Part shown: one piece after another, positions 41,307 to 56,199 of the stretch
How positions within the stretch are numbered: position 1 is the first letter of the stretch
How the letters are laid out: every line of letters starts with the position of its first letter
DNA from: Shinella daejeonensis
Lineage (GTDB): Bacteria; Pseudomonadota; Alphaproteobacteria; Rhizobiales; Rhizobiaceae
Length of the DNA: 64,000 nt
Assembly: GCF_024281235.1 (NCBI RefSeq)
Contig: NZ_JAHWXY010000001.1
Coordinates: 558,001-622,000, forward strand
Direction of reading: 5' to 3'
Made by a program: the position numbers and the translations under genes
The notes under the pieces: generated by a model
What the model was told of the DNA's origin: nothing
What the model saw: the letters and a program-made list of their open reading frames with translations, nothing else
Databases searched by the model: none

Positions 41307-42830
41307 TTAGGCCGCGCGCGAATAGCCGGAGTTCACACCCGCCGCCGCGCTGCCGCTGGTGCGGAAGGCGCTGAGCTGGGTGGCGATGGAGGCCGCCTCC
41401 TCGGTCAGCGCCTGACTTGCCGCATTGGCCTGCTCGACCATGGTGGCGTTCTGCTGGGTGATCTGATCCATCGCGTTGATCGCCTGGTTCACCGCCAGCA
41501 GGCCCGTTGCCTGTTCGGCCGTGCTCGCCCGGATCGACGTGAAGACCGCGCTGACCTCCACGACCTGCGACACGATCTGGCGCAGCGACTGGGCGACATC
41601 GTTGACGGAGCGAACACCGTCCTCGACCTGCGCATGCGATTTGGCGATCAGGTTCTGGATGTCCTTGGCGGCGTCGGCGCAACGTTGCGCCAGCGCGCGC
41701 ACCTCCGAAGCGACGACGGCGAAACCCCGCCCCGCCTCGCCGGCGCGCGCCGCCTCGATACCGGCGTTCAGCGCCAGAAGGTTCGTCTGGAAGGCGATCT
41801 CGTCGATCACCTCGATGATATTGGCAATCGCCGAGGAGGAATTCTGGATTTCACCCATGGTGGTGATGGCCTCTTCCACGACGCCGCCGCTGCGCTCGGC
41901 GTTCTCGCGGGCCGCCGTCACCAGATTGTTGGCCTCATTGGCGCTTTCGGCCGTCTGGCGCACCGTGGTCGTCACCTGTTCGACGGCGGCCGCGGTCTCC
42001 TCCAGATTGGCGGCCTGCCGCTCCGTGCGCCTTGCCAGATCGTCGGAGGCGGCGGCGATTTCCTGCGCGCTCCGATGGATCGATCCGGCGCCGGCACCAA
42101 TGCTGCCGATCGCCTGCGACAGGGTGGAAAGCGCATAGTTGAAATCCTCGCCGAGCGCCTCATAGGCTTCCGGCAGCGTGCCGGTGATACGCGCCGTCAG
42201 ATCGCCTTCCGCCACGCGCCGCAGCGCCGCGCCGAACGTATCGCCGACAAGCTTGCGTTCCCCTGCCACCACCTGAGACTGCACCGCCTCCTGCTTGGCG
42301 AGGTCGGACATGTCCATATAGACGGAAATCGACAGGTCCATGTCGAGGAACATCGCTTTCACGAGGCTCACGATACGCGCGGCGAAATCATCCACGCTGG
42401 CCTGCTCGCGCGAAAAGAGGCCGCCCTTCGGCCAATGGGCCTTTACGGCCTCGGTCAGCAGGTGTTCGGCGACCAGCGCATAGGCGCCGATATACCAGCG
42501 CGGCTCAAGTCCGATACGGGCATGAACCTGGCCGATGGTCTGCACCCGCTCGGCATATTCCTTCGAGAACTCGCCAGCGGCGATATTCGCCCAATGGCCG
42601 AGTTGCGCATTCTTCGCACGGTTCATATGCGCATCGGAAGAAAACAGATGGCTGACTTCCGGAGTCTTGCGGACGACACCGTAGAAGGTATCGAGCGCGG
42701 GACCGAATTCCTTTTCGATCAGCGGCTTGAGCGCGCGCAGGTGACGGCGGGCGGCTTCGTCGAGTCCCATGAACTCCAGGCGACGTTCGAGATCCGGATT
42801 CATGCTGGCGGCGTTTTGGGCAGGCTTCAT
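41307..42830 (-). CDS. Globin-coupled methyl-accepting chemotaxis protein (HemAT-like)
   Basis: About 507 aa from the ATG at 42830; the frame is also open from a TTG at 42869. The N-terminal protoglobin domain (about residues 15-170) has QTIGQVHARIGLEPRWYIGAY, where the His is the expected proximal heme ligand. A HAMP-like linker follows (about 205-250) and the signalling hairpin contains EIAFQTNLLALNAGIEAARAGEAGRGFAVVASEVRALAQRC. No transmembrane helix is present, so it is a soluble receptor, probably for O2. No C-terminal NWETF-type tether is seen. Confidence 0.92.
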   Translation of the reverse strand: MKPAQNAASMNPDLERRLEFMGLDEAARRHLRALKPLIEKEFGPALDTFYGVVRKTPEVSHLFSSDAHMNRAKNAQLGHWANIAAGEFSKEYAERVQTIGQVHARIGLEPRWYIGAYALVAEHLLTEAVKAHWPKGGLFSREQASVDDFAARIVSLVKAMFLDMDLSISVYMDMSDLAKQEAVQSQVVAGERKLVGDTFGAALRRVAEGDLTARITGTLPEAYEALGEDFNYALSTLSQAIGSIGAGAGSIHRSAQEIAAASDDLARRTERQAANLEETAAAVEQVTTTVRQTAESANEANNLVTAARENAERSGGVVEEAITTMGEIQNSSSAIANIIEVIDEIAFQTNLLALNAGIEAARAGEAGRGFAVVASEVRALAQRCADAAKDIQNLIAKSHAQVEDGVRSVNDVAQSLRQIVSQVVEVSAVFTSIRASTAEQATGLLAVNQAINAMDQITQQNATMVEQANAASQALTEEAASIATQLSAFRTSGSAAAGVNSGYSRAA

Positions 42831-43061
42831 TCCTGGCGATCCTGAGGGAGAGAGGGAGGAAGAAAGCAATATGTCCCGAAAACCGGCTCATCGAGCCGGC
42901 CTCGTCCCGTCATGGGCCGCGACGAAGGTGCAAGGCCTTCGCCGGAACAGCGTTCCTTCAGAATATCATTAGGTTAGCGTGGTAAATTGTTTCTTACGCT
43001 TACGTCAGAAACGGGGCTTCAGTCGGGGTATTCCACCCCGCCTGTCCAGAGGACGCAAAGA

Positions 43062-43113: not shown

Positions 43114-44268
43114 TCAGATGCACTCGATGAACAAGGCCCGCGCCGCTTCCAGCGTCAGTTCCACCGGATTACCGCCAGCCGTCGGGTCGACGACCGCCAT
43201 GGCGGACATCTCGTCGAGCCGGTCCGTGCCGACGCCCAGCGCCGAGAGCTTGTCCGGCACGCCCAGTTCCTCGCGAAGCCTGAGCACATAATCGAAAAAG
43301 CCGTCGAAGCCGCCGGCGATGCCGAGATAGGCGGCGGCGCTGGCGATCTTCGCCTCGATGGCCCGGCGATTGAACGTCAAGACCGCCGGCATCACGACGG
43401 CATTCGTCATGCCGTGATGGGTGTTGTAGATCGCGCCGACCGGATGCGACAGTGAGTGGATGGCGCCGAGCCCCTTCTGGAAGGCGACCGCCCCCATGGC
43501 CGCCCCCGACATCATATGGGCGCGGGCCTCGATATCCGTCCCGTCCTTATAGGCGCGCGGCAGATATTCCTTCACGAGGCGCATGCCCTCCAGCGCGATC
43601 CCCTGGCTCATCGGGTGATAGAACGGCGAGCAATAGGCTTCCAGGCAATGGGCGAAGGCATCCATGCCGGTGCCGGCGGTGATGATCTTCGGCATGCCGA
43701 CCGTCAGCTGCGGATCGCAGATCGTGACCGAAGGCAGGATCTTCGGATGGAAGATCACCTTTTTCGTATGCGTCTCGGAATTCGTGATGACCGAAGCGCG
43801 GCCGACCTCCGAGCCGGTGCCGGCCGTCGTCGGCACGGCGACGATCGGCGCGATACCCTCGGGGCTCGCCCGCGTCCACCAGTCGCCGATGTCCTCGAAA
43901 TCCCAGACCGGCCGCGTCTGGCCGGACATGAAGGCGACGGCCTTGCCGAGATCGAGGCCCGAGCCGCCGCCGAACGCGACGACGCCGTCATGGCCGCCGT
44001 CCTTGAAGGCGATGACGCCGGCGTTGAGGTTCCGGTCGCTCGGGTTCGGATCGACCTCGGCGAACATCGCCCGGCCCAGTCCGGCGGCCTCGAGAATGTC
44101 GAGCGCCTCCCCGGTGATCGCCATCGTCGACAGGCCGCGATCGGTGATCAGCAGCGGCTTCGTCATGCCGACCGCCTTGCAGTGGTCAGCGAGTTCCTTG
44201 ATGCGGCCCGCGCCGAACTTGATGGCGGTGGGGTAGCTCCAGTTGGCGGTGATGGTCATGCTGTTCAA
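43114..44268 (-). CDS. Iron-containing (group III) alcohol dehydrogenase
   Basis: NAD(P)-dependent dehydrogenase of the Fe-ADH family, 384 aa. The nucleotide loop GGGSGLDLGKAVA is near residue 100, PTTAGTGSEVGRASVI near 145, and the metal ligands lie in TGMDAFAHCLEAYCSPFYHP (Asp and His, about 200) and AIHSLSHPVGAIYNTHHG (two His, about 265-280). The ATG at 44268 overlaps the aldehyde dehydrogenase stop (ATGA). In this operon it may oxidise the hydroxyl of a gamma-glutamylated amino alcohol to an aldehyde; this is inference. Confidence 0.92.
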   Translation of the reverse strand: MNSMTITANWSYPTAIKFGAGRIKELADHCKAVGMTKPLLITDRGLSTMAITGEALDILEAAGLGRAMFAEVDPNPSDRNLNAGVIAFKDGGHDGVVAFGGGSGLDLGKAVAFMSGQTRPVWDFEDIGDWWTRASPEGIAPIVAVPTTAGTGSEVGRASVITNSETHTKKVIFHPKILPSVTICDPQLTVGMPKIITAGTGMDAFAHCLEAYCSPFYHPMSQGIALEGMRLVKEYLPRAYKDGTDIEARAHMMSGAAMGAVAFQKGLGAIHSLSHPVGAIYNTHHGMTNAVVMPAVLTFNRRAIEAKIASAAAYLGIAGGFDGFFDYVLRLREELGVPDKLSALGVGTDRLDEMSAMAVVDPTAGGNPVELTLEAARALFIECI

Positions 44269-45644
44269 GCTTTCCTGAAGTGATAGGACTTGGGTCTCGT
44301 GAGGTTATGGAAGCCGATGACGGAGAGGGAGCCGCCGCGGCCCGTTTCCTTGACGCCGGTCCAGCACAGCGCCGGATCGAGATAATCGGCGCGGTTCATG
44401 AAGACGGTGCCGGTCTCCAGCTCCCCGCCGATCCGGGCGGCGCGTTCCGGATCGCTCGTCCACAGCGAGGCCGTGAGGCCGTATTTGCAGTCGTTCATCA
44501 GGGCGACCGCCTCTTCGTCGCTCTTCACCTTCATGATGCCGACGGTGGGGCCAAACGTCTCCTCCGTCATGAACTCCATCGAATGGTCGACGTCGACGAG
44601 GATCTGCGGCGCGACATAGGCGCCGCCGTCGTCGGCCGGGAAGAGCTTGGGATCGACCAGCGCCTTCGCGCCCTTCGCGACAGCATCGGCGACCTGCGAG
44701 CGCACGGTCGCCGCGAAACGCTTGTGCGCCATCGGCCCGAGCGTCGTGTCCTGATCCAGCGGATTGCCGAGCTTGTAGTTGGAAACCCAGGCGACGGACT
44801 TCTCGACGAAGGCGTCATAAAGATTTTCGGCCACATAGATGCGCTCGATACCGCAGCAGCACTGACCCGAATTGTAGGTCGCGCCATCCATCAGCGTGTC
44901 GACGGCGGCGTCGAGATCGGCGTCCGCCATGACGTAACCCGGATCCTTGCCGCCCAGTTCGAGCCCGAGCGGCGTAAAGGTGCCGGCGGCGGCCCGCTCC
45001 ATCGCCCGCCCGCCCTCGACGGAGCCGGTGAAATTGACGAAGTCGAAGCTCCTGGCGGCGATCAGCGCCGAGGTCGTGTCATGATCGAGGAAAACGTTCT
45101 GGAAAACGTCCTCCGGCACGCCCGCCTCGTTGAAGGCCCGCACCAGACGCTCGCCGACGAGCAAGGTCTGCGCCGCATGCTTGAGGATCACCACATTGCC
45201 GGCCATCAGGGCCGGGGCGACCGTGTTGATCGCCGTCATGTAGGGATAGTTCCAGGGCGCGACGACGAAGACGACGCCATGCGGCTCCCGTTCGATGCGG
45301 CGTTCGAAGCGGTCGCTCTCCTCCACGACGATCGGCGCCAGCGACGCGCCCGCGATCTCCGCGACATAGTTGGAACGCTCGTTGAATCCCTTGAACTCGC
45401 CGCCGTAGCGCACCGGCCGGCCCATCTGCCAGGCAAGTTCCGGCACGATCTCGTCGGCCATCTCGTTCACGCGGGCAACACCCTTCAGCACCAGCTGGAC
45501 GCGCTCTTCGAGCGGTCGTTGCGCCCAGGCTTTCCGGGCTTTTTTCGCGCGGGCGACCACGGCCTGCGCTGCCGCAAGCGGCATCGCTTCACGCTCGGCG
45601 TAAACCGAACCGTCAACCGGGGATATGCATTTGATCACGGTCAT
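44265..45644 (-). CDS. NAD(P)-dependent aldehyde dehydrogenase
   Basis: Member of the ALDH superfamily, 459 aa, slightly short because it lacks part of the usual N-terminus. VAPWNYPYMTAINTVAPALMAGN is near residue 128, FVNFTGSVEGGRAM near 197, the general-base Glu in LGLELGGKDPGYV near 229 and the catalytic Cys in SGQCCCGIERIYV near 261. The run of three Cys is seen in several ALDHs. It would oxidise the aldehyde formed by the coupled alcohol dehydrogenase, in the way PuuC acts in the gamma-glutamyl putrescine pathway. Confidence 0.92.
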   Translation of the reverse strand: MTVIKCISPVDGSVYAEREAMPLAAAQAVVARAKKARKAWAQRPLEERVQLVLKGVARVNEMADEIVPELAWQMGRPVRYGGEFKGFNERSNYVAEIAGASLAPIVVEESDRFERRIEREPHGVVFVVAPWNYPYMTAINTVAPALMAGNVVILKHAAQTLLVGERLVRAFNEAGVPEDVFQNVFLDHDTTSALIAARSFDFVNFTGSVEGGRAMERAAAGTFTPLGLELGGKDPGYVMADADLDAAVDTLMDGATYNSGQCCCGIERIYVAENLYDAFVEKSVAWVSNYKLGNPLDQDTTLGPMAHKRFAATVRSQVADAVAKGAKALVDPKLFPADDGGAYVAPQILVDVDHSMEFMTEETFGPTVGIMKVKSDEEAVALMNDCKYGLTASLWTSDPERAARIGGELETGTVFMNRADYLDPALCWTGVKETGRGGSLSVIGFHNLTRPKSYHFRKA

Positions 45645-45707
45645 GATCGATGTCCTGTCGTTCTATCGGAATGTTCAATTCTGGCGCGGGCGCACGCCAG
45701 ACCGTTC

Positions 45708-47078
45708 TTACGCTCTCTCGAAACCGCGCGCCACTTCCCAATCGGTGATGCGGCGGTCGTATTCCTCCTGCTCCCATTCCGCGGCCCGCACATAGTGATC
45801 GACGACATCGTCGCCGAAAGCCGAGCGCAGCATGTCCGAGTTCCTCAACGCCACCGTCGCATCGCGCAGCGTATGCGGGATTTCCCTGATGTCCTTCCCG
45901 CCATAGGCATCGCCGACGAAGGGCGGCTCCAGTTCCAGCTTCTCCTCGATGCCCGCGATCCCGGCCGCCAGCTGCGCGGCCATCGCGAGATAGGGATTGA
46001 GGTCCGAGCCACCGACCCGGCATTCGATGCGGATGCCCTTGGTGCCTTCGCCGCAAAGCCGGTAGCCGGCGGTGCGGTTGTCCTTGCTCCAGATCGCCTT
46101 GGTCGGCGCGAAGGTGCCGGCGACGAAACGCTTGTAGGAATTGATATAGGGCGCGAGGAAATAGGTGGTGTCGCTCGCATAGGCGAGCAGCCCCGCGACA
46201 TACATCCGCATCAGGTCGGACATGCCGTAGCGTGCCCCGGTATCGTAGAACTCCGGCGTCTTGCCATCGAGGCTCCAGAGCGACTGGTGAACGTGCGAGG
46301 AGGAGCCGGCGGCGTTGTAGTTCCACTTGGCGAGGAAGGTCACCGCCTTTCCGCGCTGCCAGGCGATTTCCTTGGTGGCGTTCTTGATGATCACATGCCG
46401 GTCGGCCATTTCCAGCGCATCGGCATAACGCACATTGATCTCGGCCTGGCCGGCCGACGCCTCGCCCTTGGAGTTTTCGACCGGAATGCCCGCGCCGTGC
46501 AGCCCGTTGCGCAGCGCGCGCATCACATCTTCCTCCTTGGTGGTCTGGAAAATGTGATAATCCTCGTTGTAGCCGCTCGCCGGGACGAGATCGCGGTAGC
46601 CGCTGAGCCGGGCGTCGTCATAGGTCTGGTCGAAGAGGTAGAACTCCAGCTCCGTCGCCATGAAGGCCTTGAACCCCAGGGCTTCGAGCCGCTTCACCTG
46701 CTTCTTGAGGATGCCGCGCGGCGAATGGGGCACATCCTTGTGGGTCTGATGGTCGAGCACGTCGCAAATAACGATCGCCGTGCCTTCGAGCCACGGCAGC
46801 TTGCGCAACGTCGCAAGGTCCGGCTTCATCGTATAGTCGCCATAGCCGGCTTCCCAGCTTGTCGCCTTGTAGCCCGGCACCGTCTCCATCTCGATGTCGG
46901 TCGCCAGCAGATAGTTGCAGCTATGGGTCTCCTCATAACCGCTGTCGATGAAATATTGCGCATGGAAGCGCTTGCCCATCAGGCGCCCCTGCATGTCGAC
47001 GAGGCATGCGAGAACGGTGTCGATACGGCCTTCGGCCACATCCTTCTTCAGGTCTTCAAAGCGATAGGTCACGGTCAT
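45708..47078 (-). CDS. Glutamine synthetase-family gamma-glutamyl ligase (PuuA-like)
   Basis: A 456-aa member of the glutamine synthetase superfamily. Core motifs are kept: the metal Glu in FMATELEFYLFD (about residue 140), the pair in SKGEASAGQAEINVRYADAL (about 205-220), the His in SSSHVHQSLW (about 272) and Arg in SYKRFVAGTFAPTKAIWSKDNRTAGYR. The ammonia-site loop differs from true GS (LVDMQGRLMGKR instead of an FTDxRG-type loop), and no NLYDLPP adenylylation site is present. This pattern fits PuuA/GlnA3-type enzymes that ligate glutamate to an amine. Operon partners support an amine or amino alcohol substrate. Confidence 0.88.
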   Translation of the reverse strand: MTVTYRFEDLKKDVAEGRIDTVLACLVDMQGRLMGKRFHAQYFIDSGYEETHSCNYLLATDIEMETVPGYKATSWEAGYGDYTMKPDLATLRKLPWLEGTAIVICDVLDHQTHKDVPHSPRGILKKQVKRLEALGFKAFMATELEFYLFDQTYDDARLSGYRDLVPASGYNEDYHIFQTTKEEDVMRALRNGLHGAGIPVENSKGEASAGQAEINVRYADALEMADRHVIIKNATKEIAWQRGKAVTFLAKWNYNAAGSSSHVHQSLWSLDGKTPEFYDTGARYGMSDLMRMYVAGLLAYASDTTYFLAPYINSYKRFVAGTFAPTKAIWSKDNRTAGYRLCGEGTKGIRIECRVGGSDLNPYLAMAAQLAAGIAGIEEKLELEPPFVGDAYGGKDIREIPHTLRDATVALRNSDMLRSAFGDDVVDHYVRAAEWEQEEYDRRITDWEVARGFERA

Positions 47079-47111
47079 TTGGAGGCGGCCCCGGGGGTTA
47101 TCCTGTCATGC

Positions 47112-47171
47112 CGGACCGGACGAAGGCCGTCCGGTCCGCTCTGCTGGGAACCGGCCGCAAAAGCGGCCGGT
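47112..47171 (-). repeat. Two intercistronic stem-loops between dctP and the GS-like gene
   Basis: CGGACCGGAC (47112-47121) pairs with GTCCGGTCCG (47129-47138), and ACCGGCCGC (47150-47158) pairs with GCGGCCGGT (47163-47171) around AAAA. Both stems are perfect. Strong hairpins just after a binding-protein gene often protect its mRNA 3' end or partly terminate, giving more transporter than enzyme. Confidence 0.7.
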
Positions 47172-47190
47172 CCGTGCGTCGTTCGCCGGC

Positions 47191-48258
47191 TCAGCCGTAG
47201 CGATAGGGAGCGCCTGCATTGCGCATCGTTTCCTGATATTTCTTCAGGATCTCCACCACCTTGGCGTTGCGCGGGCTCTGGGCGGCGATCTCGTCCCAGA
47301 AGGAAAGCGCCATGTCTTCGACCGTCTTCCACTCGGCTTCCGGAATCGTCGTGAGTTCGAGCTTGCCGCCGGTCGTGCGGTAATGCGCCTCGCCCCACCA
47401 GTACCAGTGCTGGCGGTAGTAATGCGAGGAGTCCATCGTCAGCTTGAAGATCTCCTTCAGATGGTCGGGGACTTCGTTCCACTTGTCGGTATTGGCGAAG
47501 AACGAGCCCGACCACGCGCCGGAGATATTGTTGGTGAGATAGTATTTGGTGACCTCGGCCCAGCCGACGCTGTAGATCTCGGTTGCGCCGCACCAGGCGA
47601 TGCCGTCGATCTCGCCGGTTTGCAGGGCGACCTCGATATCTTCCCACGGCAGCGTCACCGGCACCACACCGAGACGCGAGATGAACTGGCCGCCCGTCGG
47701 GAACGTGTAGACGCGCAGCCCCTTCAGGTCCTCCAGGCTGCGGATCGGCTTGGTGGTGGCGAAGTTGCAGGGGTCCCATGCGCCGGCCGAAAGCCAGGTC
47801 ACGCCCGGCACCTCGCCGTAGGCCTCCTCCCAGATCTCCTTCAGGCCGTACCAGTTCCAAAGGACCGGCACGTCGAGGCTGTAGCGCGACGCGAAGGGGA
47901 AATAGGCGCCGAACACCGATACGTCGACCGGCGAGGCCATGGAATCGTCATCGCTCTGCGCGGCGTCGATGGTGCCGGCCTGCACGGCGCGGAACAGTTC
48001 GCCCTGCGGCACGAGCTGGTCCGACGTATAGAGTTCGATGACCATCTCGCCGTTCGCCGCCCGGTTGAAGGCGTCGATCGCCGGCTTGACGACGTGATCG
48101 GCAAGAGCCGGGCCGGCATAGGTCTGAAGCCGCCACTTGATCGGGCTTTGCGCCTTCACATAAGGAGCGGCGAGCGTGGTCGCGCCGACCGCGCCGACAC
48201 CCGTCAGCACGGATTTGCGCAGGAAATCGCGCTTATTCATAGTCTTGATATCAGTCAT
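47191..48258 (-). CDS. TRAP transporter substrate-binding protein DctP-type
   Basis: Periplasmic solute receptor of a TRAP transporter, 355 aa. The N-terminus MTDIKTMNKRDFLRKSVLTGVGAVGATTLAAPYVKA resembles a Tat-type signal with KR rather than RR. The mature part has the DctP pattern: GELFRAVQAGTIDAAQSDDD, a central IRSLEDLKGLRVYTFPTGGQFISRLGVVPVTLPWEDIEVALQTGEIDG with the conserved Arg that usually binds a carboxylate. It is cotranscribed with dctQ and dctM. The ligand is probably a carboxylate or zwitterion. Confidence 0.92.
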   Translation of the reverse strand: MTDIKTMNKRDFLRKSVLTGVGAVGATTLAAPYVKAQSPIKWRLQTYAGPALADHVVKPAIDAFNRAANGEMVIELYTSDQLVPQGELFRAVQAGTIDAAQSDDDSMASPVDVSVFGAYFPFASRYSLDVPVLWNWYGLKEIWEEAYGEVPGVTWLSAGAWDPCNFATTKPIRSLEDLKGLRVYTFPTGGQFISRLGVVPVTLPWEDIEVALQTGEIDGIAWCGATEIYSVGWAEVTKYYLTNNISGAWSGSFFANTDKWNEVPDHLKEIFKLTMDSSHYYRQHWYWWGEAHYRTTGGKLELTTIPEAEWKTVEDMALSFWDEIAAQSPRNAKVVEILKKYQETMRNAGAPYRYG

Positions 48259-48385
48259 TCCAAGCCTCCCATTGAAATAATCGGATCAACTCAGGTGCGG
48301 CGGCGGGCTGACCCCTGTCAGCGCAACCGCCGTCTCCTTGTCGTTTTACGCCTTGCTCCATGGCTCCTCCCCGAGCAGTGAACGT

Positions 48386-49714
48386 TTATCTTTTTCCGGA
48401 ATAGACCTCCGGCAGCCACATCGCGATGTCCGGGAACACCATGATGATGATCATGCACAGCACCATCAGGAAGAAGAAGGGAACGATGGAGCGGTAAATA
48501 TCGACGATGGTGATCTCCGGCGGCGCCATCGCGCGCATCAGGAACAGGTTATAGCCGAAGGGCGGCACGATATAGGCGATCTGGCAGGTGATCGTGTAGA
48601 GGATGCCGAACCAGATCAGGTCGAAGCCGAGGATCTTCACCAGCGGGATGTAGAGCGGCGCGACGATGACCAGCATGGCCGTATCGTCGAGGAACATGCC
48701 GAGGATGATGAAGGAAAACAGCATCATCGACAGCACGCCCCAGGGGCTGAGTTCCCAGGTGTGCAGCAGCAGGTTCTCGATCGCCTTGATCGCGCCGAGA
48801 CCGTCATAGACGGCGCTGAAGCAGAGCGCGCCCAGGATGATCCACAGGAACATCGCCGAAACCGCCAGCGTGTTGCGTGTCGTATCGTCCAGCACCTTGA
48901 AACTCAGCCGTCCCGTCGCCCAGGCCGCCAGCAACGCCAGCAGCGCACCGACCATGGAGGTTTCGACAAGGCTGGTGGTGCCGGTGAGGAACAGGCCCAT
49001 GATGACGGCGAACAGGCCGAACGGCAGCAGCCCCTCGCGCAGCAGGACGAGCTTTTCACGCAGCGTGATGGTGGCGCGCTCCTCCGCCGGCAAGGCCGGC
49101 CCCAGTTCCGGCTGAAGGCGGCAGCGGATATAGATATAGGCCGTGAAGACGATCGCCATCAGGATGAACGGGCCGATGCCGGCGAGCCACAATTGCAGCA
49201 CCGGCTGGCGCGCGATCATCGCATAGAGGATGAGCACGACGCTCGGCGGCCCCATGATGCCGAGGGACGAGCCGCCCTGGATGACGCCGGTGATCATCAC
49301 CTTGTCGTAGCCGCGCCGGAGAAGCTCCGGCAGCGCCACCGTGGCGCCGATCGCCATACCGGCGACAGACAGGCCGTTGACCATGGAGATGATGATCATC
49401 AGGCCCATGGTGCCGATCGCCAGCCCGCCGCGCACGCCCCCGAACCAGACGTGGAACATGCGGTAGAGATTGTTGGCGATGCCGGATTCCGAGAGCATGT
49501 AGCCCATGAAGACGAAGAACGGCACGGTGATCAGCGGATACCAGTTGAGCACCTGGAACGCCGCGTTGAAAGGAAGCTCGAAGGATCCCTTGCCCCACAG
49601 CCAGAGCGCTGCTGCGGTTCCCACCGCACCGATAACGCCGTAGACGCGCTGGCCCGTGGCCATGAGCACGAGCATGGAGGCGAACATGAAGACGGTGATA
49701 AATTCGGAACTCAT
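48386..49714 (-). CDS. TRAP transporter large permease DctM-type
   Basis: Sodium-coupled membrane subunit, 442 aa with about 12 hydrophobic segments. Recognisable parts include FFVFMGYMLSESGIANNLYRMFHVWFGGVRGGLAIGTMG (about residues 67-105), GGSSLGIMGPPSVVLILYAMIA near 150 and FLDDTAMLVIVAPLYIPLVKILGFDLIWFGILYTITCQIAYIVPPFGYNLFLM near 345-400. Its start overlaps the dctQ stop (ATGA). The two proteins work as a complex with DctP. Confidence 0.93.
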   Translation of the reverse strand: MSSEFITVFMFASMLVLMATGQRVYGVIGAVGTAAALWLWGKGSFELPFNAAFQVLNWYPLITVPFFVFMGYMLSESGIANNLYRMFHVWFGGVRGGLAIGTMGLMIIISMVNGLSVAGMAIGATVALPELLRRGYDKVMITGVIQGGSSLGIMGPPSVVLILYAMIARQPVLQLWLAGIGPFILMAIVFTAYIYIRCRLQPELGPALPAEERATITLREKLVLLREGLLPFGLFAVIMGLFLTGTTSLVETSMVGALLALLAAWATGRLSFKVLDDTTRNTLAVSAMFLWIILGALCFSAVYDGLGAIKAIENLLLHTWELSPWGVLSMMLFSFIILGMFLDDTAMLVIVAPLYIPLVKILGFDLIWFGILYTITCQIAYIVPPFGYNLFLMRAMAPPEITIVDIYRSIVPFFFLMVLCMIIIMVFPDIAMWLPEVYSGKR

Positions 49715-50223
49715 GCGATCGGCTTTCCGCGCGCTTCAGCGACATCTTTGAAGAACTGGGCAATCGTCTGGAGCAGCATCATGAAGATGCCGAGCGTCAT
49801 GACGGTCTTGACGGGCCACAGCAGGGGCGCCCAGGCCGTGTAGTTCTTCTGATTGTAGGTGATCGAATACTGCGTGGAGGAAAGGCCGCCCCAGAACAGC
49901 ACGATCAGGTAGAAAATCACGAACAGGATGGTGATCGAATCGGTGAACGCCCGCGTTTTCGGCCTCATCATTCCGTAAAAGAGATCCATGCGGACATGCG
50001 CGTTCATCTGCATCGAATAGGCGCCGCCGAGCAGATAGTAGGCCGACAGCATGAACTGCGACATCTCCATGATCCAGTTGACCGGGTAGCCGAAAATGAC
50101 GCGCATCACGGTCGAATAGAGCAGGATCGCACCCATCGGAAAGATCAGGTACATCGCGAAAATGCCGACCTTCCGGTTGATCCAGTCGATGGCGCGCACA
50201 TAGTGCTTGATGAACTCAGGCAT
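49711..50223 (-). CDS. TRAP transporter small permease DctQ-type
   Basis: A 170-aa membrane protein with four predicted helices from the ATG at 50223. YPVNWIMEMSQFMLSAYYLLGGAYSMQMNAHVRMDLFYGMM (about residues 48-88) holds the DctQ pattern with the conserved Glu and HVRMD. It lies between the amidohydrolase gene (119-nt gap) and dctM (4-nt overlap). Confidence 0.92.
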   Translation of the reverse strand: MPEFIKHYVRAIDWINRKVGIFAMYLIFPMGAILLYSTVMRVIFGYPVNWIMEMSQFMLSAYYLLGGAYSMQMNAHVRMDLFYGMMRPKTRAFTDSITILFVIFYLIVLFWGGLSSTQYSITYNQKNYTAWAPLLWPVKTVMTLGIFMMLLQTIAQFFKDVAEARGKPIA

Positions 50224-50342
50224 GATCCGGGCTCCCGTCCATGGCGGCCACGTCGCCCGCCTGGCCGAACCGTTCATAGTGCAACGAAAACATCCGTCTC
50301 CCCCCTTTCCCGTTCCTTCGCCCGCGGCACCAGCGGCTCCGC

Positions 50343-51113
50343 TCAGCCCACTTCCGGCGACGACAGGCTCTCGACCAGCAGGTCCGCCAGATAATCGGCG
50401 ACAGCGCGTTCGCCGGCCTCCTCCCGTATCAGGTCGTTCCGCACCTCGATCATCACGTTGGCGAGGCCGTTGGCAAGCCCATGCTCCCTGAGCGTATGCG
50501 TGACGCCGTCAGCAGGCCCGTAGGGCTCGTTGCAGCGTACGTTGTAACGCCCGCCCGCCCGGCCGGCCGCCGCAAGCATGGCCTCGGCAAGCCGCTTGTC
50601 CTCGTCGTGGAGGATTCCGATCTCCACATCGCGCCGCTGTCCGAAATAGACCGGCGTGAAGGAATGCACGGTGACCAAGACCGGCCGCAAACCCTCGGCC
50701 GCCCGGGTCGCGAGCAATTGCGAAAGCGCCTCGCGGAACGGCAGGTAGAGCGCCTGCGTGCGCGCCTCGCGCGCCGCCTGGTCGAGCCCCTTGTTGCCGG
50801 GAACGGCAAAGACCTCGCTGCTCTCCGGCATGGCCGCCGATGCCTCCGGCGGACGGTTGCAATCATAGACGAGACGGGAAAAGCGCTGCCGCACGAGAGG
50901 GGCGTCGAGGCGCTCGGAAAGGCGGCGGGCGACGGCAAGGGCGCCCGGATCCCAGGCGATATGACTGTGCAGCGCCTCGTCGCTCAGCCCCAGGGTGCCA
51001 AGCGACCTCGGTATGCGCCGCGACGCATGTTCGCAGACGATCACCGCACGACCGCGTGCAGATGTATTTTCGAGAGCGACGGCGTCGCCCTCCTCCTTGG
51101 ACAGAATTCCCAC
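50343..51113 (-). CDS. N-formylglutamate amidohydrolase family hydrolase
   Basis: Zinc-type amidohydrolase family, 256 aa from a GTG at 51113 that has GAGGGG nine bases upstream; the frame is open to a TTG at 51137. Motifs: VIVCEHASRRIPRSLG (about residue 25-40), HSHIAWDPGALAVARRLS (about 50-67), VTVHSFTPVYFG (about 130-141), HDEDKRL (about 152) and the Glu in NVMIEVRNDLI (about 222). Known members hydrolyse N-formylglutamate in histidine breakdown, but no hut genes are nearby. First in an operon with a PuuA-like ligase, it may instead hydrolyse a gamma-glutamyl amide. Confidence 0.83.
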   Translation of the reverse strand: MGILSKEEGDAVALENTSARGRAVIVCEHASRRIPRSLGTLGLSDEALHSHIAWDPGALAVARRLSERLDAPLVRQRFSRLVYDCNRPPEASAAMPESSEVFAVPGNKGLDQAAREARTQALYLPFREALSQLLATRAAEGLRPVLVTVHSFTPVYFGQRRDVEIGILHDEDKRLAEAMLAAAGRAGGRYNVRCNEPYGPADGVTHTLREHGLANGLANVMIEVRNDLIREEAGERAVADYLADLLVESLSSPEVG

Positions 51114-51147
51114 GCGCCTGATCCCCTCGACCGGCAATTTTTATTAT

Positions 51148-51163
51148 TGAAGAGAATTCTTCA
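51148..51163. promoter_or_regulatory. RpiR operator candidate 1 (TGAAGA-N4-TCTTCA)
   Basis: Perfect 6-bp arms TGAAGA and TCTTCA around GAAT. On the minus strand TTGACA at 51181-51176 and AATTCT at 51158-51153 are spaced by 17 nt and would form the promoter of the amidohydrolase-TRAP-GS operon; this palindrome covers the -10. A bound regulator there would repress. Confidence 0.7.
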
Positions 51164-51189
51164 CAGATACGCCGGTGTCAACGGCATTA

Positions 51190-51205
51190 TGAAGAAATCT
51201 CTTCA
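51190..51205. promoter_or_regulatory. RpiR operator candidate 2 (TGAAGA-N4-TCTTCA)
   Basis: The same arms TGAAGA and TCTTCA, here around AATC, with the centre exactly 42 bp (four helical turns) from the first copy. It lies upstream of the minus-strand -35 and 10 bp before a plus-strand TTGACA (51215-51220) that may serve rpiR. Two in-phase sites allow cooperative binding. Confidence 0.7.
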
Positions 51206-51284
51206 AAAAACCATTTGACACACAAGATCGCAGCGATGTTTACTTTTCGAAACTCCGGCAGAGACCGGGGCGCAGGGGAATAAT

Positions 51285-52184
51285 TTGACATCGAATCAAA
51301 CACCCATGACGGTGTCGGATGTGATCAACGCCCATTTCGCTGCGCTCACGCGCGCCGAGAAGCAGCTGGCCGCGTCACTGCTCGACAATTATCCCGTCTC
51401 CGGCCTCGGCAGCATCACGACGGTCGCCGAGAACGCCGGCGTTTCGACGCCGACCGTGGCGCGCATGGTGCAGAAGCTGGGCTATCGCGGTTTTCCGGAT
51501 TTCCAGGCGCGCCTGCGCCATGAACTGGAAGCGACGCTTTCCGGCCCCATCGCCAAGCACGACCGCTGGGCCGCCAACGCCCCAAACACCCATATTCTCA
51601 ACCGCTTCGCCGAAGCCATCACCACCAACCTGCGCCAGACGCTGGCGCAGCTCGAAACGGCGGAATTCGATACCGTCGCCGCGCTGCTGGCCGACCGCAA
51701 GCGCAGCATCTACATCATCGGCGGGCGGATCACCAAGGCGCTTGCCGACTACCTGTTCACCCATCTCCAGGTCATCCGCCCGAACGTCACGCAGATCTCC
51801 GCCAATCCGAGTTCCTGGCCGCATTACGTGCTGAACATGCAGGCGGGCGACGTGCTGGTGATCTTCGATATCCGCCGCTACGAGCAGGAGATGGAGACCC
51901 TTGCCCGCACCGCCCACGAGCGCCGCGTCGAGATCGTCCTTTTCACCGATCCCTGGGTTTCGCCCGTCGCCAAGGTCGCCGAACATGCCTTCCGGGTGCA
52001 TATCGAAGTTCCATCGGCCTGGGATTCGTCGGTCCTGACGCTTTTTATCGTGGAAGCGCTGATCGAAGCGGTGCAAAGTTCCGCCTGGACGGAGACCAGC
52101 GGTCGCATGAAAACCCTGGAACAGCTTTTCGAGGCAAGCCGGCTCTTTCGCAAACCGCATCCGCCACCCGGCGACACGTCATGA
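51285..52184 (+). CDS. MurR/RpiR-family transcriptional regulator
   Basis: A 299-aa regulator with an N-terminal HTH_6 domain (about residues 8-85, LGSITTVAENAGVSTPTVARMVQKLGYRGFPDFQARLRHEL) and a SIS domain (about 125-260, SIYIIGGRITKALADYLFTHLQ). SIS domains usually bind phosphosugars, but RpiR members also sense other metabolites. The start is TTG at 51285, supported by AGGGGA five bases upstream; the next ATG (51306) has no ribosome binding site. It is divergent from the TRAP/GS operon and precedes the ABC transporter genes, so it probably controls both. Confidence 0.92.
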   Translation: MTSNQTPMTVSDVINAHFAALTRAEKQLAASLLDNYPVSGLGSITTVAENAGVSTPTVARMVQKLGYRGFPDFQARLRHELEATLSGPIAKHDRWAANAPNTHILNRFAEAITTNLRQTLAQLETAEFDTVAALLADRKRSIYIIGGRITKALADYLFTHLQVIRPNVTQISANPSSWPHYVLNMQAGDVLVIFDIRRYEQEMETLARTAHERRVEIVLFTDPWVSPVAKVAEHAFRVHIEVPSAWDSSVLTLFIVEALIEAVQSSAWTETSGRMKTLEQLFEASRLFRKPHPPPGDTS

Positions 52185-52280: not shown

Positions 52281-53387
52281 GTGATGTCATCCATGCGACG
52301 CCTGCTTTCGCTCTCCACCGCCCTGGTGGTCGCCTCCTCCTCGCTGGCCTTTGCCGAACCGAGCGCAGAGCTTGTGGAAGCCGCCAAGAAGGAAGGCAAG
52401 CTCACCACGATCGCGCTTCCCCACAGCTGGTGCGGCTATGGCGAGGTGATCGCCGCGTTCAAGGCGAAATACCCGGAGATCCAGATCAACGAACTGAACC
52501 CCGACGCCGGTTCGGCCGATGAGATCGAGGCCATCAAGGCCAACAAGGGCAACACCGGCGATCAGGCTCCGGACGTCATCGACGTCGGTCTGGCCTTCGG
52601 CCCTTCCGCCAAGGCCGAAGGGCTGATCCAGCCCTACAAGGTCTCCACCTGGGATTCGATCCCCGACGAGGCCAAGGATCCCGAGGGTTACTGGTACGGT
52701 GACTACTACGGCGTTCTCGCCTTCATGGTGAACACCGATATCATCGAGAACGTGCCGCAGGACTGGTCCGACCTCCTGAAGCCGGAATATGCCAACAGCG
52801 TCGCGCTGTCCGGCAATCCGCTCGGCGACAACCAGGCGATCCTCGCCGTTCAGGCCGCCGGTCTTGCCACCGGTGCGGCTGCCGGCGCCGACGCCGCCGA
52901 AGCCGGCGTCAAGTATTTCGCCGAACTCAACAAGAGCGGCAACCTCGTGCCGATCACCGCGCGCACCGGCACGCTCGCCCAGGGCGCCACGCCGATCGTC
53001 GTCTACTGGGACTACAACGCCCTTTCAGGCAAGGACGAGCTCAACGGCAATCCGCCGGTCGAGGTGGTCGTCCCGGCGTCCGGCGTCATCGCAGGCGTCT
53101 ACGTCCAGGCGATCTCCGCCCATGCGCCGCATCCGAACGCCGCCAAGCTGTGGATGGAGCATCTTTATTCGGACGAAGGCCAGCTTGGCTGGCTGAAGGG
53201 CTATTGCCACCCGATCCGCTTCAACGATCTCGCCAAGAACGGCAAGATCCCGCAGGAACTGCTCGACAAGATGCCGCCGGCGGCCGCCTATGAGAAAGCC
53301 GTCTTCCCGAGCCTTGAAGAACAGGCCGCCGCGAAGGAAGTCATTTCCAAGCAGTGGAGCGCCACGGTCGGCGCGAACATCGAGTAA
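52281..53387 (+). CDS. ABC transporter substrate-binding protein (PotD/FbpA-like family 1)
   Basis: Periplasmic binding protein, 368 aa, with a Sec signal ending SLAFA (about residue 25). The start is GTG at 52281, six bases after AAAGGAG; an ATG follows at once. The mature protein shows the polyamine/iron/2-aminoethylphosphonate-type fold: ELVEAAKKEGKLTTIALPHSWCGYGEVIAAFKAKYPEIQI, DVIDVGLAFGPSAKAEGLIQPY and YWYGDYYGVLAFMVNTDII. The ligand is unknown; the family and context suggest an amine. It heads the transporter part of the rpiR operon. Confidence 0.9.
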   Translation: MMSSMRRLLSLSTALVVASSSLAFAEPSAELVEAAKKEGKLTTIALPHSWCGYGEVIAAFKAKYPEIQINELNPDAGSADEIEAIKANKGNTGDQAPDVIDVGLAFGPSAKAEGLIQPYKVSTWDSIPDEAKDPEGYWYGDYYGVLAFMVNTDIIENVPQDWSDLLKPEYANSVALSGNPLGDNQAILAVQAAGLATGAAAGADAAEAGVKYFAELNKSGNLVPITARTGTLAQGATPIVVYWDYNALSGKDELNGNPPVEVVVPASGVIAGVYVQAISAHAPHPNAAKLWMEHLYSDEGQLGWLKGYCHPIRFNDLAKNGKIPQELLDKMPPAAAYEKAVFPSLEEQAAAKEVISKQWSATVGANIE

Positions 53388-53407
53388 GCTCGATTCCAAC
53401 GCATGAC

Positions 53408-53433
53408 CCTTCCCGCTGGATACGGCGGGAAGG
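53408..53433 (+). repeat. Stem-loop after the binding-protein gene
   Basis: CCTTCCCGC (53408-53416) and GCGGGAAGG (53425-53433) are perfect 9-bp arms around an 8-nt loop in the 76-nt gap between the binding-protein and permease genes. It probably stabilises the upstream mRNA and raises binding-protein output. Confidence 0.65.
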
Positions 53434-53463
53434 CTTTCCGCAAGCCGAAGGGTAGACCGTCCC

Positions 53464-54339
53464 ATGGCCACCATCCCGAGCTTCACGCTCAACCGTCGCA
53501 CCGTCATCGACTGGCTCGGCGTCGCGCCCTTCATGATCTTCGCGATCCTGTTCCTGATCCTTCCGACGCTTTATCTGGTGCGCGGCGCCTTCCTCACGCA
53601 GGAGGGAGCCTTCACGCTCCGCAACATCGCCGATCTCTTCACGCCGACGATCCTCAGTTCCTACTGGATCAGCATCCGGGTTTCGCTGGCGTCCTCGCTC
53701 GGCGGCGTGGCAATCGGCTTCATGCTCGCCTGGGCGATCACCCTCGGCGCCCTTCCCGCGTGGATACGCTCCAGCCTGCTCACCTTCTCGGGCGTCGCGT
53801 CCAATTTCGCCGGCGTGCCGCTGGCCTTCGCCTTTGTCGCCACGCTGGGGCGCACCGGTCTCGTGACCCTGCTTCTGCGCGACTGGCTCGGCTTCAATCT
53901 CTATTCGACCGGCTTCAACCTTCTGTCCTTCCTCGGCCTCACCATTACCTATATGTTCTTCCAGATTCCGTTGATGGTGCTGATGCTGACGCCGGCGCTC
54001 GACGGCATGAGGAGGGAGTGGCGCGAAGCGTCGGAAATCCTCGGCGCATCCAACTGGCAATACTGGCGCATGATCGCGCTGCCGATCCTCTGGCCCAGCC
54101 TGCTTGGAACGTTCCTGCTGCTGTTCGCCAACGCCTTCGGCGCGGTGGCCACCGCCTATGCGCTGACCGGCAGCTCGCTCAATATCGTCCCGATCGTGCT
54201 CTATACCCAGATCCGCGGCGACGTGCTCAACAACCCCAACCTCGGATATGCGCTGGCGCTCGGCATGATCGTCATCACCGGCCTGTCCAACGTCCTCTAT
54301 CTGTGGCTGCGCTCGCGCGCGGAACGGTGGCAGAAATGA
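53464..54339 (+). CDS. ABC transporter permease (PotB-like)
   Basis: A 291-aa inner-membrane permease with six predicted helices. The EAA loop that contacts the ATPase is REASEILGASNWQYWRMIALPILWPSLLGTFLLL (about residues 185-218). It follows the binding-protein gene after 76 nt and overlaps the second permease gene by 4 nt (ATGA). The layout of two permeases, one ATPase and one binding protein matches polyamine-type importers. Confidence 0.92.
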   Translation: MATIPSFTLNRRTVIDWLGVAPFMIFAILFLILPTLYLVRGAFLTQEGAFTLRNIADLFTPTILSSYWISIRVSLASSLGGVAIGFMLAWAITLGALPAWIRSSLLTFSGVASNFAGVPLAFAFVATLGRTGLVTLLLRDWLGFNLYSTGFNLLSFLGLTITYMFFQIPLMVLMLTPALDGMRREWREASEILGASNWQYWRMIALPILWPSLLGTFLLLFANAFGAVATAYALTGSSLNIVPIVLYTQIRGDVLNNPNLGYALALGMIVITGLSNVLYLWLRSRAERWQK

Positions 54340-55124
54340 AGTCGTCGCGTCTTTTCGCCTGGATCGCGCTCGCCATCGGGGCCACCTATTTCCTCGTGCC
54401 GCTGATCGGCACCTTCGAGTTCTCGCTGCGCATGCGGCGCGGCGAATATTCCTTCGATGCCTATCAGTCGGTCTTCTCCGACATGCAGTTCCGCGCCACC
54501 TTCGGCTATTCCATGCTGATGGGATTGCTCACCATCGTCTTCGGCATGCTGCTCGTCGTGCCGACCGCCTATTGGGTGCGCCTGCGGCTGCCGCAGATCC
54601 GGCCGCTCATCGAATTCCTGACGCTCCTGCCGCTGGTCATTCCCGCGATCGTCATCGTCTTCGGCTATCTGCGCCTCTATAATTCCTCCTCCTTCCTGCC
54701 GCTCACCAATTCGACCAACGGCACCAACCTGCTCCTGATGTTTTCCTATATGACGCTGTCCCTGCCCTATATGTACCGGGCGGTGGATACGGCGATGCGG
54801 TCGATCGACGTGGCGACGCTGACCGAGGCCGCCGAAAGCCTCGGCGCGAAATGGCCGACCATCCTGTTCCGCTGCATCTTCCCCAATGTCATGAGCGGCG
54901 TGCTGTCGGGCGCCTTCATCACCTTCGCCATCGTGATGGGCGAATTCACCATGGCGGCGCTGCTGAACCGCCCGGCCTTCGGCCCCTACCTCCAGTTCGT
55001 CGGCGCCAACAAGGCCTATGAACCCTCGGCGCTCGCCATCATCGCCTTCGCCATCACCTGGCTCAGCATGGGGCTGCTCCAGATCGTCTCCCGTTTCCAG
55101 AAAACCGCGCCTGTGAAGGCCTGA
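54336..55124 (+). CDS. ABC transporter permease (PotC-like)
   Basis: A 262-aa permease from the ATG at 54336, which sits in the stop of the first permease gene. Six hydrophobic segments and the EAA loop TEAAESLGAKWPTILFRCIFPNVMSGVLSGAFITF (about residues 165-195) are clear. It forms the transmembrane pore with the preceding permease. The ATPase gene follows after 13 nt. Confidence 0.92.
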   Translation: MKSSRLFAWIALAIGATYFLVPLIGTFEFSLRMRRGEYSFDAYQSVFSDMQFRATFGYSMLMGLLTIVFGMLLVVPTAYWVRLRLPQIRPLIEFLTLLPLVIPAIVIVFGYLRLYNSSSFLPLTNSTNGTNLLLMFSYMTLSLPYMYRAVDTAMRSIDVATLTEAAESLGAKWPTILFRCIFPNVMSGVLSGAFITFAIVMGEFTMAALLNRPAFGPYLQFVGANKAYEPSALAIIAFAITWLSMGLLQIVSRFQKTAPVKA

Positions 55125-55137
55125 GGATTTCCCGTCC

Positions 55138-56199
55138 ATGTCGTTTCTCACGCTCAGCAACATCCAGAAGTCCTTCGGCCCCACCCAGGTGGTCAAGGAT
55201 TTCGACATGGCCATCGAGAAAGGTGAATTCGTCTCCTTCCTCGGCCCGTCGGGCTGCGGCAAGACCACGGTGCTGCGCATGATCGCCGGCTTCGAGACGC
55301 CGAGCGGCGGCACCATCACCATCGAGGACCGGAGCCTGGCGGACCTCAAGCCCAACCAGCGCAATATCGGCATGGTGTTCCAGGCCTATGCGCTCTTCCC
55401 GAACATGACGGTCGCCGAAAACGTCGCCTTCGGCCTCAAGGTCGCCGGCAAGCCGAAGGCCGAGATCGACGCCCGGGTGAAGGAGATGCTCGGCCTGATC
55501 AAGCTCGATCATCTCGCCGGGCGCTATCCCTACCAGATGTCCGGCGGCCAGCAGCAGCGCGTGGCGCTTGCCCGCGCGCTTGCCCCGAAGCCCCAGGTGC
55601 TGCTGCTCGACGAGCCGCTTTCGGCGCTCGACGCCAAGATCCGCGTGTCGCTGCGCGAGGAGATCCGCCAGATCCAGCAGCAGCTCGGCATCACCACCGT
55701 CTTCGTCACCCACGACCAGGAAGAGGCGCTTTCGATCTCCGACCGCATCGTCGTGATGAACGCCGGACGCGCCGACCAGATCGGCACGCCTGCGGATATC
55801 TACAATCGTCCCGCCACCCGCTTCGTCGCCGGTTTCGTCGGCACCCTCAACCTCATCAAGGCGACGGTGGTCGACCCGGCGGCACATCGTGTCTCGATCG
55901 GCGATCAGGGCGTGACGCTGCGCGAGGCGCTCGACGATGCGAAACCGGGCGATGCGATATCGCTGGCGCTGCGTCCAGAAGCCGGCTCGATCGCTCCCGA
56001 CGCCCGCGGCGACACCGCGCTTGTCGGCACCGTGACGTCCTCCAACTTCCTCGGCTCGGTGATCCGCACCCGCATGGACGTCGGCGGCAGCAGCATCTCC
56101 TTCGACATGTTCAACAGTCCCGGCCTGACCCCTCCGGCGGCCGGCGAGACCGTGACGCTGCGCTTCACCGCAAGCGATCTCCTGATCATCCGCGATTGA
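55138..56199 (+). CDS. ABC transporter ATP-binding protein (PotA-like)
   Basis: A 353-aa importer ATPase. Walker A GPSGCGKTT is near residue 37, Q-loop MVFQAYALFPNMTVAENVAFGLK near 80-102, signature MSGGQQQRVALARALA near 135, Walker B VLLLDEPLSALDAKIR near 155, and the H-loop VTHDQEEALSISD near 195. A C-terminal TOBE domain (about 275-350) is present, as in PotA and other CUT1/POT-type ATPases. It is the last gene of the rightward operon. Confidence 0.94.
   Translation: MSFLTLSNIQKSFGPTQVVKDFDMAIEKGEFVSFLGPSGCGKTTVLRMIAGFETPSGGTITIEDRSLADLKPNQRNIGMVFQAYALFPNMTVAENVAFGLKVAGKPKAEIDARVKEMLGLIKLDHLAGRYPYQMSGGQQQRVALARALAPKPQVLLLDEPLSALDAKIRVSLREEIRQIQQQLGITTVFVTHDQEEALSISDRIVVMNAGRADQIGTPADIYNRPATRFVAGFVGTLNLIKATVVDPAAHRVSIGDQGVTLREALDDAKPGDAISLALRPEAGSIAPDARGDTALVGTVTSSNFLGSVIRTRMDVGGSSISFDMFNSPGLTPPAAGETVTLRFTASDLLIIRD

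What the first reader, a model, noticed from the sequence alone, without database searches (positions are those of the whole stretch)
43114..51113. Candidate undescribed pathway: TRAP importer plus gamma-glutamyl ligase, Fe-ADH, ALDH and amide hydrolase in one operon
Seven leftward genes, mostly overlapping or closely spaced, encode a hydrolase of the N-formylglutamate amidohydrolase family, DctQ, DctM, DctP, a PuuA-like glutamine synthetase homologue, ALDH and iron ADH. The known Puu pathway uses an amine oxidase after gamma-glutamylation. Here an alcohol dehydrogenase takes that place, which would suit an amino alcohol: ligate glutamate, oxidise alcohol to aldehyde, aldehyde to acid, then release glutamate. 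The Ipu pathway for isopropylamine/alaninol has this logic. A TRAP importer and an amidohydrolase of this family in such a pathway would be new to me.
Basis: partly seen in the sequence, partly recalled or inferred. Interest (0 to 1): 0.75.

Follow-up and report, generated by a model that had tools for sequence, protein, structure and literature searches.

The report
Known ethanolamine uptake-and-breakdown operon
This is a set of genes with which a bacterium most likely imports ethanolamine, a piece of membrane lipid, tags it with glutamate and oxidises it to glycine; the same kind of operon has already been described in other bacteria, so it is ordinary.

Summary
In detail: seven leftward genes (FGase, DctQ, DctM, DctP, GS-like ligase, ALDH, Fe-ADH) at 43114-51137, with a divergent RpiR gene at 51285. 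It is not undescribed. The same eight gene functions, in the same locus-tag order, form the published ethanolamine operon of Phaeobacter sp. MED193, which its authors relate to earlier work in Chromohalobacter salexigens and Agrobacterium C58. A review lists exactly PF00120, PF00465, PF00171 and PF05013 as this pathway's enzymes. The window's DctP is 66% identical to Csal_0678, which was solved with ethanolamine. The ligase is 67% identical to Csal_0679. The glutamate inferred to clamp ethanolamine is conserved in 101 of 101 sequences, and the slot of the usual carboxylate-binding Arg is Phe or Tyr. Most likely pathway: ethanolamine -> gamma-glutamylethanolamide -> aldehyde -> gamma-glutamylglycine -> glycine + glutamate. 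Small additions: two operator-like palindromes in the shared promoter, an adjacent ABC importer, and a Halomonadaceae form with a different ligase and an amidotransferase-like gene where FGase was not found.

The parts
51285..52184 (+). RpiR-family regulator (HTH_6 + SIS), divergent from the operon
   Evidence: Pfam PF01418, PF01380; divergent RpiR in 37 of the 38 complete loci among 80; an RpiR gene (MED193_10021) heads the Phaeobacter set
51148..51163 (.). operator-like palindrome TGAAGAGAATTCTTCA (role inferred)
   Evidence: exact TGAAGANNNNTCTTCA match; 3 such sites in the 4.66 Mb genome, two of them here, control pattern 0
51190..51205 (.). second operator-like palindrome TGAAGAAATCTCTTCA (role inferred)
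   Evidence: a pair also in L008, one site in S. meliloti L128
50343..51137 (-). PF05013 hydrolase, inferred gamma-glutamylglycine amidohydrolase
   Evidence: Pfam; only PDB sequence hit at E <= 0.001 is 2odf, Atu2144, E 1e-94
49711..50277 (-). TRAP small permease DctQ
   Evidence: Pfam PF04290
48386..49714 (-). TRAP large permease DctM
   Evidence: Pfam PF06808
47191..48258 (-). TRAP binding protein DctP, inferred ethanolamine receptor (EtoX-type)
45708..47078 (-). GS-like ligase, inferred gamma-glutamylethanolamide synthetase
44265..45644 (-). aldehyde dehydrogenase, inferred to make gamma-glutamylglycine
   Evidence: Pfam PF00171; syntenic
43114..44268 (-). iron-type alcohol dehydrogenase, inferred gamma-glutamylethanolamide dehydrogenase
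   Evidence: Pfam PF00465, PF25137; syntenic

Best explanation
It is the gamma-glutamylation operon for ethanolamine. The TRAP binding protein catches ethanolamine in the periplasm and DctQM import it. The GS-like ligase joins it to the gamma-carboxyl of glutamate with ATP. The Fe-ADH oxidises the alcohol to an aldehyde while the amine is masked, and the ALDH oxidises the aldehyde to gamma-glutamylglycine. The PF05013 hydrolase releases glycine and regenerates glutamate. Glycine can then enter the glycine cleavage system. The divergent RpiR protein probably controls the shared promoter. Shown elsewhere for relatives: ethanolamine binding by the receptor and induction of the gene set. Inferred here: each enzyme step, its order and the regulation.
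For: Same eight gene functions in the same locus-tag order as in Phaeobacter MED193, where five of the proteins rise on phosphorylethanolamine and the purified receptor binds ethanolamine with Kd 7.9 uM (PMC10132767, passages). DctP's nearest solved protein is Csal_0678, solved with ethanolamine. The ligase's nearest is Csal_0679, the neighbouring locus tag. The inferred ethanolamine-clamping Glu is invariant (101/101) and the Arg slot is F/Y (paper basis). A review's Table 2 lists PF00120, PF00465, PF00171, PF05013 for C. salexigens. No EutB found in this genome, glycine decarboxylase present. 38 of 80 loci hold all seven genes in order. Where a locus lacks the ligase, the genome has it elsewhere in 4 of 4 and in 11 of 13 searched out of 18 TRAP-only loci. 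On Aminobacter pAA03 the four enzyme genes sit beside bhcRABC, a glyoxylate pathway that fits a glycine product.
Against: No protein of this window was assayed, and in the passages I read several enzyme steps are the authors' predictions. MED193 sequences were not fetched: the match to that operon is by gene function and tag order, not by sequence, and its strands were not seen. Its receptor also rose under phosphate starvation alone. No NCBIfam equivalog cut-off is reached among the families listed (for the ALDH only the best 25 of 44 were shown). Two of 13 TRAP-only genomes (L069, L080) have no ligase match at E <= 1e-60, so the receptor does not always go with this ligase. The 80 loci were chosen by DctP similarity.
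Confidence: 0.93

Rival explanations
1. Same machinery, but the natural substrate is another small amino alcohol, such as alaninol or 1-amino-2-propanol, giving another gamma-glutamyl amino acid.
For: Csal_0678 has a second PDB entry, 4xf5, which I recall as holding (S)-2-amino-1-propanol; the printed title is cut before the ligand. The Ipu route for isopropylamine/alaninol has similar logic (recalled).
Against: The homologous gene set is induced on phosphorylethanolamine and its receptor binds ethanolamine; ethanolamine is the common natural amino alcohol (general knowledge).
Confidence: 0.05
2. A Puu-type polyamine route: the ligase acts on putrescine or another amine.
For: The ligase matches the gamma-glutamylputrescine synthetase model at E 1.1e-55.
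Against: That score (189.1 bits) is far below the model's cut-off of 650. None of the seven genes is an amine oxidase. The importer belongs with the ethanolamine receptor.
Confidence: 0.01
3. The hydrolase acts on N-formylglutamate in histidine breakdown and its place in the operon is incidental.
For: The Pfam family is named N-formylglutamate amidohydrolase.
Against: The genome has four other PF05013 loci, and the hydrolase gene stays with the TRAP and ligase genes in 38 of 80 loci and with the enzyme genes on three plasmids that lack TRAP.
Confidence: 0.01

Closest known systems
Ethanolamine gene set of Phaeobacter sp. MED193 (MED193_10021-10056; PMC10132767, passages)
   Same: Same eight functions in the same locus-tag order: RpiR, amidohydrolase, TRAP small permease, large permease, receptor, ligase, aldehyde dehydrogenase, alcohol dehydrogenase.
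   Different: Different lineage; sequences and strands of MED193 were not compared here. The window also has an ABC importer gene set after RpiR; not checked in MED193.
Csal_0678/Csal_0679 of Chromohalobacter salexigens, and Agrobacterium C58 (Vetting 2015, seen only as cited by PMC10132767; paper not held)
   Same: Receptor 66% and ligase 67% identical; same four enzyme families listed for C. salexigens; hydrolase closest among solved proteins to Atu2144.
   Different: Those gene neighbourhoods were not fetched, and I did not check that Atu2144 lies in the C58 ethanolamine locus.
Streptomyces coelicolor GlnA4 ethanolamine pathway (PMC6529630, passages)
   Same: gamma-glutamylation first, then two dehydrogenases and an amide hydrolase, giving glycine and glutamate.
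   Different: No TRAP importer is named in its cluster legend. The legend calls orf2 a short-chain dehydrogenase and orf5 a glutamine amidotransferase, while the text calls SCO1615 a formylglutamate amidohydrolase family member.
Puu (putrescine) and Ipu (isopropylamine/alaninol) pathways (recalled)
   Same: Glutamyl protection of an amine, oxidation, then release of glutamate.
   Different: Different substrates and oxidases; the window's ligase does not reach the Puu model's cut-off.

Membership tests
gamma-glutamylation operon for ethanolamine (Eto-type) | TRAP receptor of the Csal_0678/EtoX kind | tested here: met
gamma-glutamylation operon for ethanolamine (Eto-type) | ethanolamine-clamping Glu (Csal Glu220) and no carboxylate-binding Arg | tested here: met
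   E227 in 101/101; position 184 is F in 77 and Y in 24. Both mappings are inferred alignments: E227 to Glu220 with a numbering offset of 3 (fits), position 184 to an Arg of 5cm6 taken as the Arg-147 slot
gamma-glutamylation operon for ethanolamine (Eto-type) | four enzymes of PF00120, PF00465, PF00171, PF05013 in one operon | tested here: met
   against the review's Table 2
gamma-glutamylation operon for ethanolamine (Eto-type) | gene order RpiR, amidohydrolase, small permease, large permease, receptor, ligase, aldehyde dehydrogenase, alcohol dehydrogenase | tested here: met
   against the locus-tag order
gamma-glutamylation operon for ethanolamine (Eto-type) | ethanolamine binding, ligase, dehydrogenase and hydrolase activities; growth phenotype | not testable with these tools
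   needs bench work
Puu putrescine pathway | ligase scores above the gamma-glutamylputrescine synthetase equivalog cut-off | tested here: not met
   189.1 bits against a cut-off of 650
true glutamine synthetase | DGSS motif of the ammonium site (role recalled) | tested here: not met
   the genome's GlnA-like paralogue at L005 has FDGSS; the window ligase has no DGSS in that stretch (gapped alignment); type I and III model cut-offs not reached
Eut (EutBC) ethanolamine ammonia-lyase route | EutB, PF06751 | tested here: not met
   0 matches in the genome (99.5% complete); E. coli control positive

The most novel reading that the evidence does not exclude
The RpiR protein is an ethanolamine-pathway repressor that works through the paired palindrome TGAAGANNNNTCTTCA, and the neighbouring PhnS/PhnT2-like ABC importer (52281-56199) serves the same pathway by importing a second source of ethanolamine nitrogen, such as a phosphonate or head-group ester.
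Probability: 0.2. Interest if true: 0.25.

Novelty: already known. Interest (0 to 1): 0.1.

Why it matters
It suggests that this genome can use ethanolamine nitrogen without the Eut route (no EutB found), and it gives a better annotation for genes that records still call glutamine synthetase and N-formylglutamate amidohydrolase. As a discovery it adds little, because the gene set, its receptor and its proposed chemistry are in print.

Tried and rejected
Undescribed pathway: rejected. Polyamine (Puu) role: rejected scores and on the receptor. True glutamine synthetase: rejected. Histidine-pathway hydrolase: considered unlikely.

A regulon beyond this promoter: the third genome match of the palindrome (C22:345602) lies over the start of another ABC binding-protein gene (ATG AAG AAA GTT CTT CAG) and reads as coding sequence, so it is probably chance. 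One search found only the two sites in the window at up to 2 mismatches, so none in front of the neighbouring ABC gene set; at that tolerance 25 of 100 shuffles gave as many, so only the exact genome-wide count carries weight. In relatives the motif decays: exact in L008 and once in S. meliloti L128; best match 1 to 4 mismatches in loci with RpiR of 52-64% identity and 3 to 5 in loci with RpiR of 33-41% (no chance level computed).

Paper searches: eight in all. One search gave 0 papers. One search (Csal_0679, 5DM3, Atu2144, 2ODF, 11ZS) gave one paper naming Csal_0679 that I did not open and one naming 2odf (passages). Vetting 2015 and Gerlt 2016 are not held. The 13 TRAP-only loci searched are 13 of 18; L044, L051, L053, L063 and L082 were not searched.

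Full report
What is there. The window holds seven minus-strand genes at 43114-51137: PF05013 hydrolase, DctQ, DctM, DctP, PF00120 ligase, PF00171 aldehyde dehydrogenase and PF00465 iron alcohol dehydrogenase. Spacings are 65, -4, 127, 112, 63 and -4 bases. A divergent RpiR regulator lies at 51285-52184. The nearest named relative of the DctP protein is in Mycoplana dimorpha (96% identity, L008).

The literature match. Westermann et al. 2023 (PMC10132767; outline and passages) describe in Phaeobacter MED193 a set with consecutive locus tags: RpiR, gamma-glutamylglycine amidohydrolase, TRAP small permease, TRAP large permease, ethanolamine-binding protein, ethanolamine gamma-glutamylase, gamma-glutamyl aldehyde dehydrogenase and gamma-glutamylethanolamide dehydrogenase. 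Their Table 2 lists five of these proteins as raised on phosphorylethanolamine (the receptor also under phosphate starvation alone), and the purified receptor bound ethanolamine with Kd 7.9 uM but none of the analogues named in that passage (phosphorylethanolamine, the two glycerol phosphates, phosphocholine). [quoted passage not shown] salexigens and Agrobacterium C58, citing Vetting et al. 2015, which is not held. PMC6529630 (passages) proposes the same four steps in Streptomyces. A 2022 review (PMC9397018, passages) lists PF00120, PF00465, PF00171 and PF05013 for the C. salexigens enzymes. I did not fetch MED193 or C. salexigens DNA, so the match to MED193 is by function and order. The window's operon is therefore best read as another copy of a described system.

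Distribution. A DctP of this kind (E <= 1e-60) is present in 68 of 199 genomes of the order, own included. Of 80 loci fetched by DctP similarity, 38 hold all seven genes in the same order and strand, 37 of them with divergent RpiR. Some of the rest are cut by contig ends. Of 20 order loci that I picked from the 67 other genomes with a match, 14 contain all seven (order not tested by the script). Where a locus had the TRAP genes but no ligase, I searched the whole genome: 4 of 4 Aquamicrobium/Mesorhizobium genomes and 11 of 13 others (13 of 18 TRAP-only loci) carry the window-type ligase elsewhere; L069 and L080 do not at E <= 1e-60. The four enzyme genes also occur without TRAP in the three plasmid loci I opened, of 41 plasmid records with a ligase match: with an amino acid permease on S. 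meliloti pSymB, without an importer in the stretch beside bhcRABC on Aminobacter pAA03, and with an EamA transporter gene following on a Ruegeria plasmid.

A second form. In 13 Halomonadaceae loci (family assignment from the record titles and my knowledge) the ligase is 32-34% identical to the window's, and the window's hydrolase finds no match in the fetched stretch (tblastn, E <= 1e-8). A class I glutamine amidotransferase-like gene is present instead (in L064 it scores 215 bits against a model with cut-off 309). Three further loci (L066, L072, L081) have that ligase without the amidotransferase. The hydrolase step may thus be filled by unrelated enzymes. C. salexigens itself does not fit this split, since its Csal_0679 is of the window's type.

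Mechanism. The most likely path is uptake of ethanolamine by TRAP, ligation to glutamate, two oxidations and hydrolysis to glycine and glutamate. Receptor binding and induction are shown in a relative. The enzyme steps in this window are inferred from homology and order. No EutB was found in the genome and a glycine decarboxylase was, so glycine has an outlet.

Regulation. Two exact copies of TGAAGANNNNTCTTCA lie at 51148-51163 and 51190-51205, between the RpiR and hydrolase genes. The whole genome has three such sites, and the backwards control pattern has none. The third lies over the start of another ABC binding-protein gene and looks like chance. The pair recurs in L008 but the motif decays in more distant relatives. 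That these are RpiR operators is inference.

Verdict. Already known; interest low.

Noticed in passing
window 52281-56199 (+): ABC importer gene set (binding protein, two permeases, ATPase; PhnS/PhnT2-like but below all curated cut-offs shown) directly after the RpiR gene. A similar set follows RpiR on S. meliloti pSymB (L128), and a homologous binding-protein gene lies in 9 of the 80 loci. Substrate unknown.
   Followed up: partly
window 51138-51284: Two 16-base palindromes TGAAGANNNNTCTTCA between the RpiR and hydrolase genes, probably RpiR operators.
   Followed up: partly
L064:10179-15097 and 12 similar loci: Halomonadaceae form of the operon: distant ligase (32-34% identity) and a class I glutamine amidotransferase-like gene, with no match to the window's PF05013 hydrolase in the fetched stretch.
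   Followed up: partly
L018, L038, L041, L042: RpiR, hydrolase and TRAP genes together without ligase and dehydrogenases; the ligase lies elsewhere in all four genomes.
   Followed up: yes
L129 (Aminobacter aminovorans plasmid pAA03): The hydrolase-ligase-ALDH-ADH cassette lies near FAD oxidoreductase genes and beside bhcRABC on a plasmid typed as conjugative, which fits glycine to glyoxylate use.
   Followed up: no
L015: A record titled Bacillus subtilis SK6B4 carries an operon with nearly the same identities to the window as the Pseudochrobactrum loci L013, L014 and L016; probably a mislabelled record.
   Followed up: no
PDB 11zs: A 2026 entry called glutamine synthetase of Brucella melitensis is a 62% identical relative of this ligase and may be an ethanolamine ligase rather than a glutamine synthetase.
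   Followed up: no
window 41307-42869 (-): Protoglobin-coupled chemotaxis receptor just downstream of the operon.
   Followed up: no
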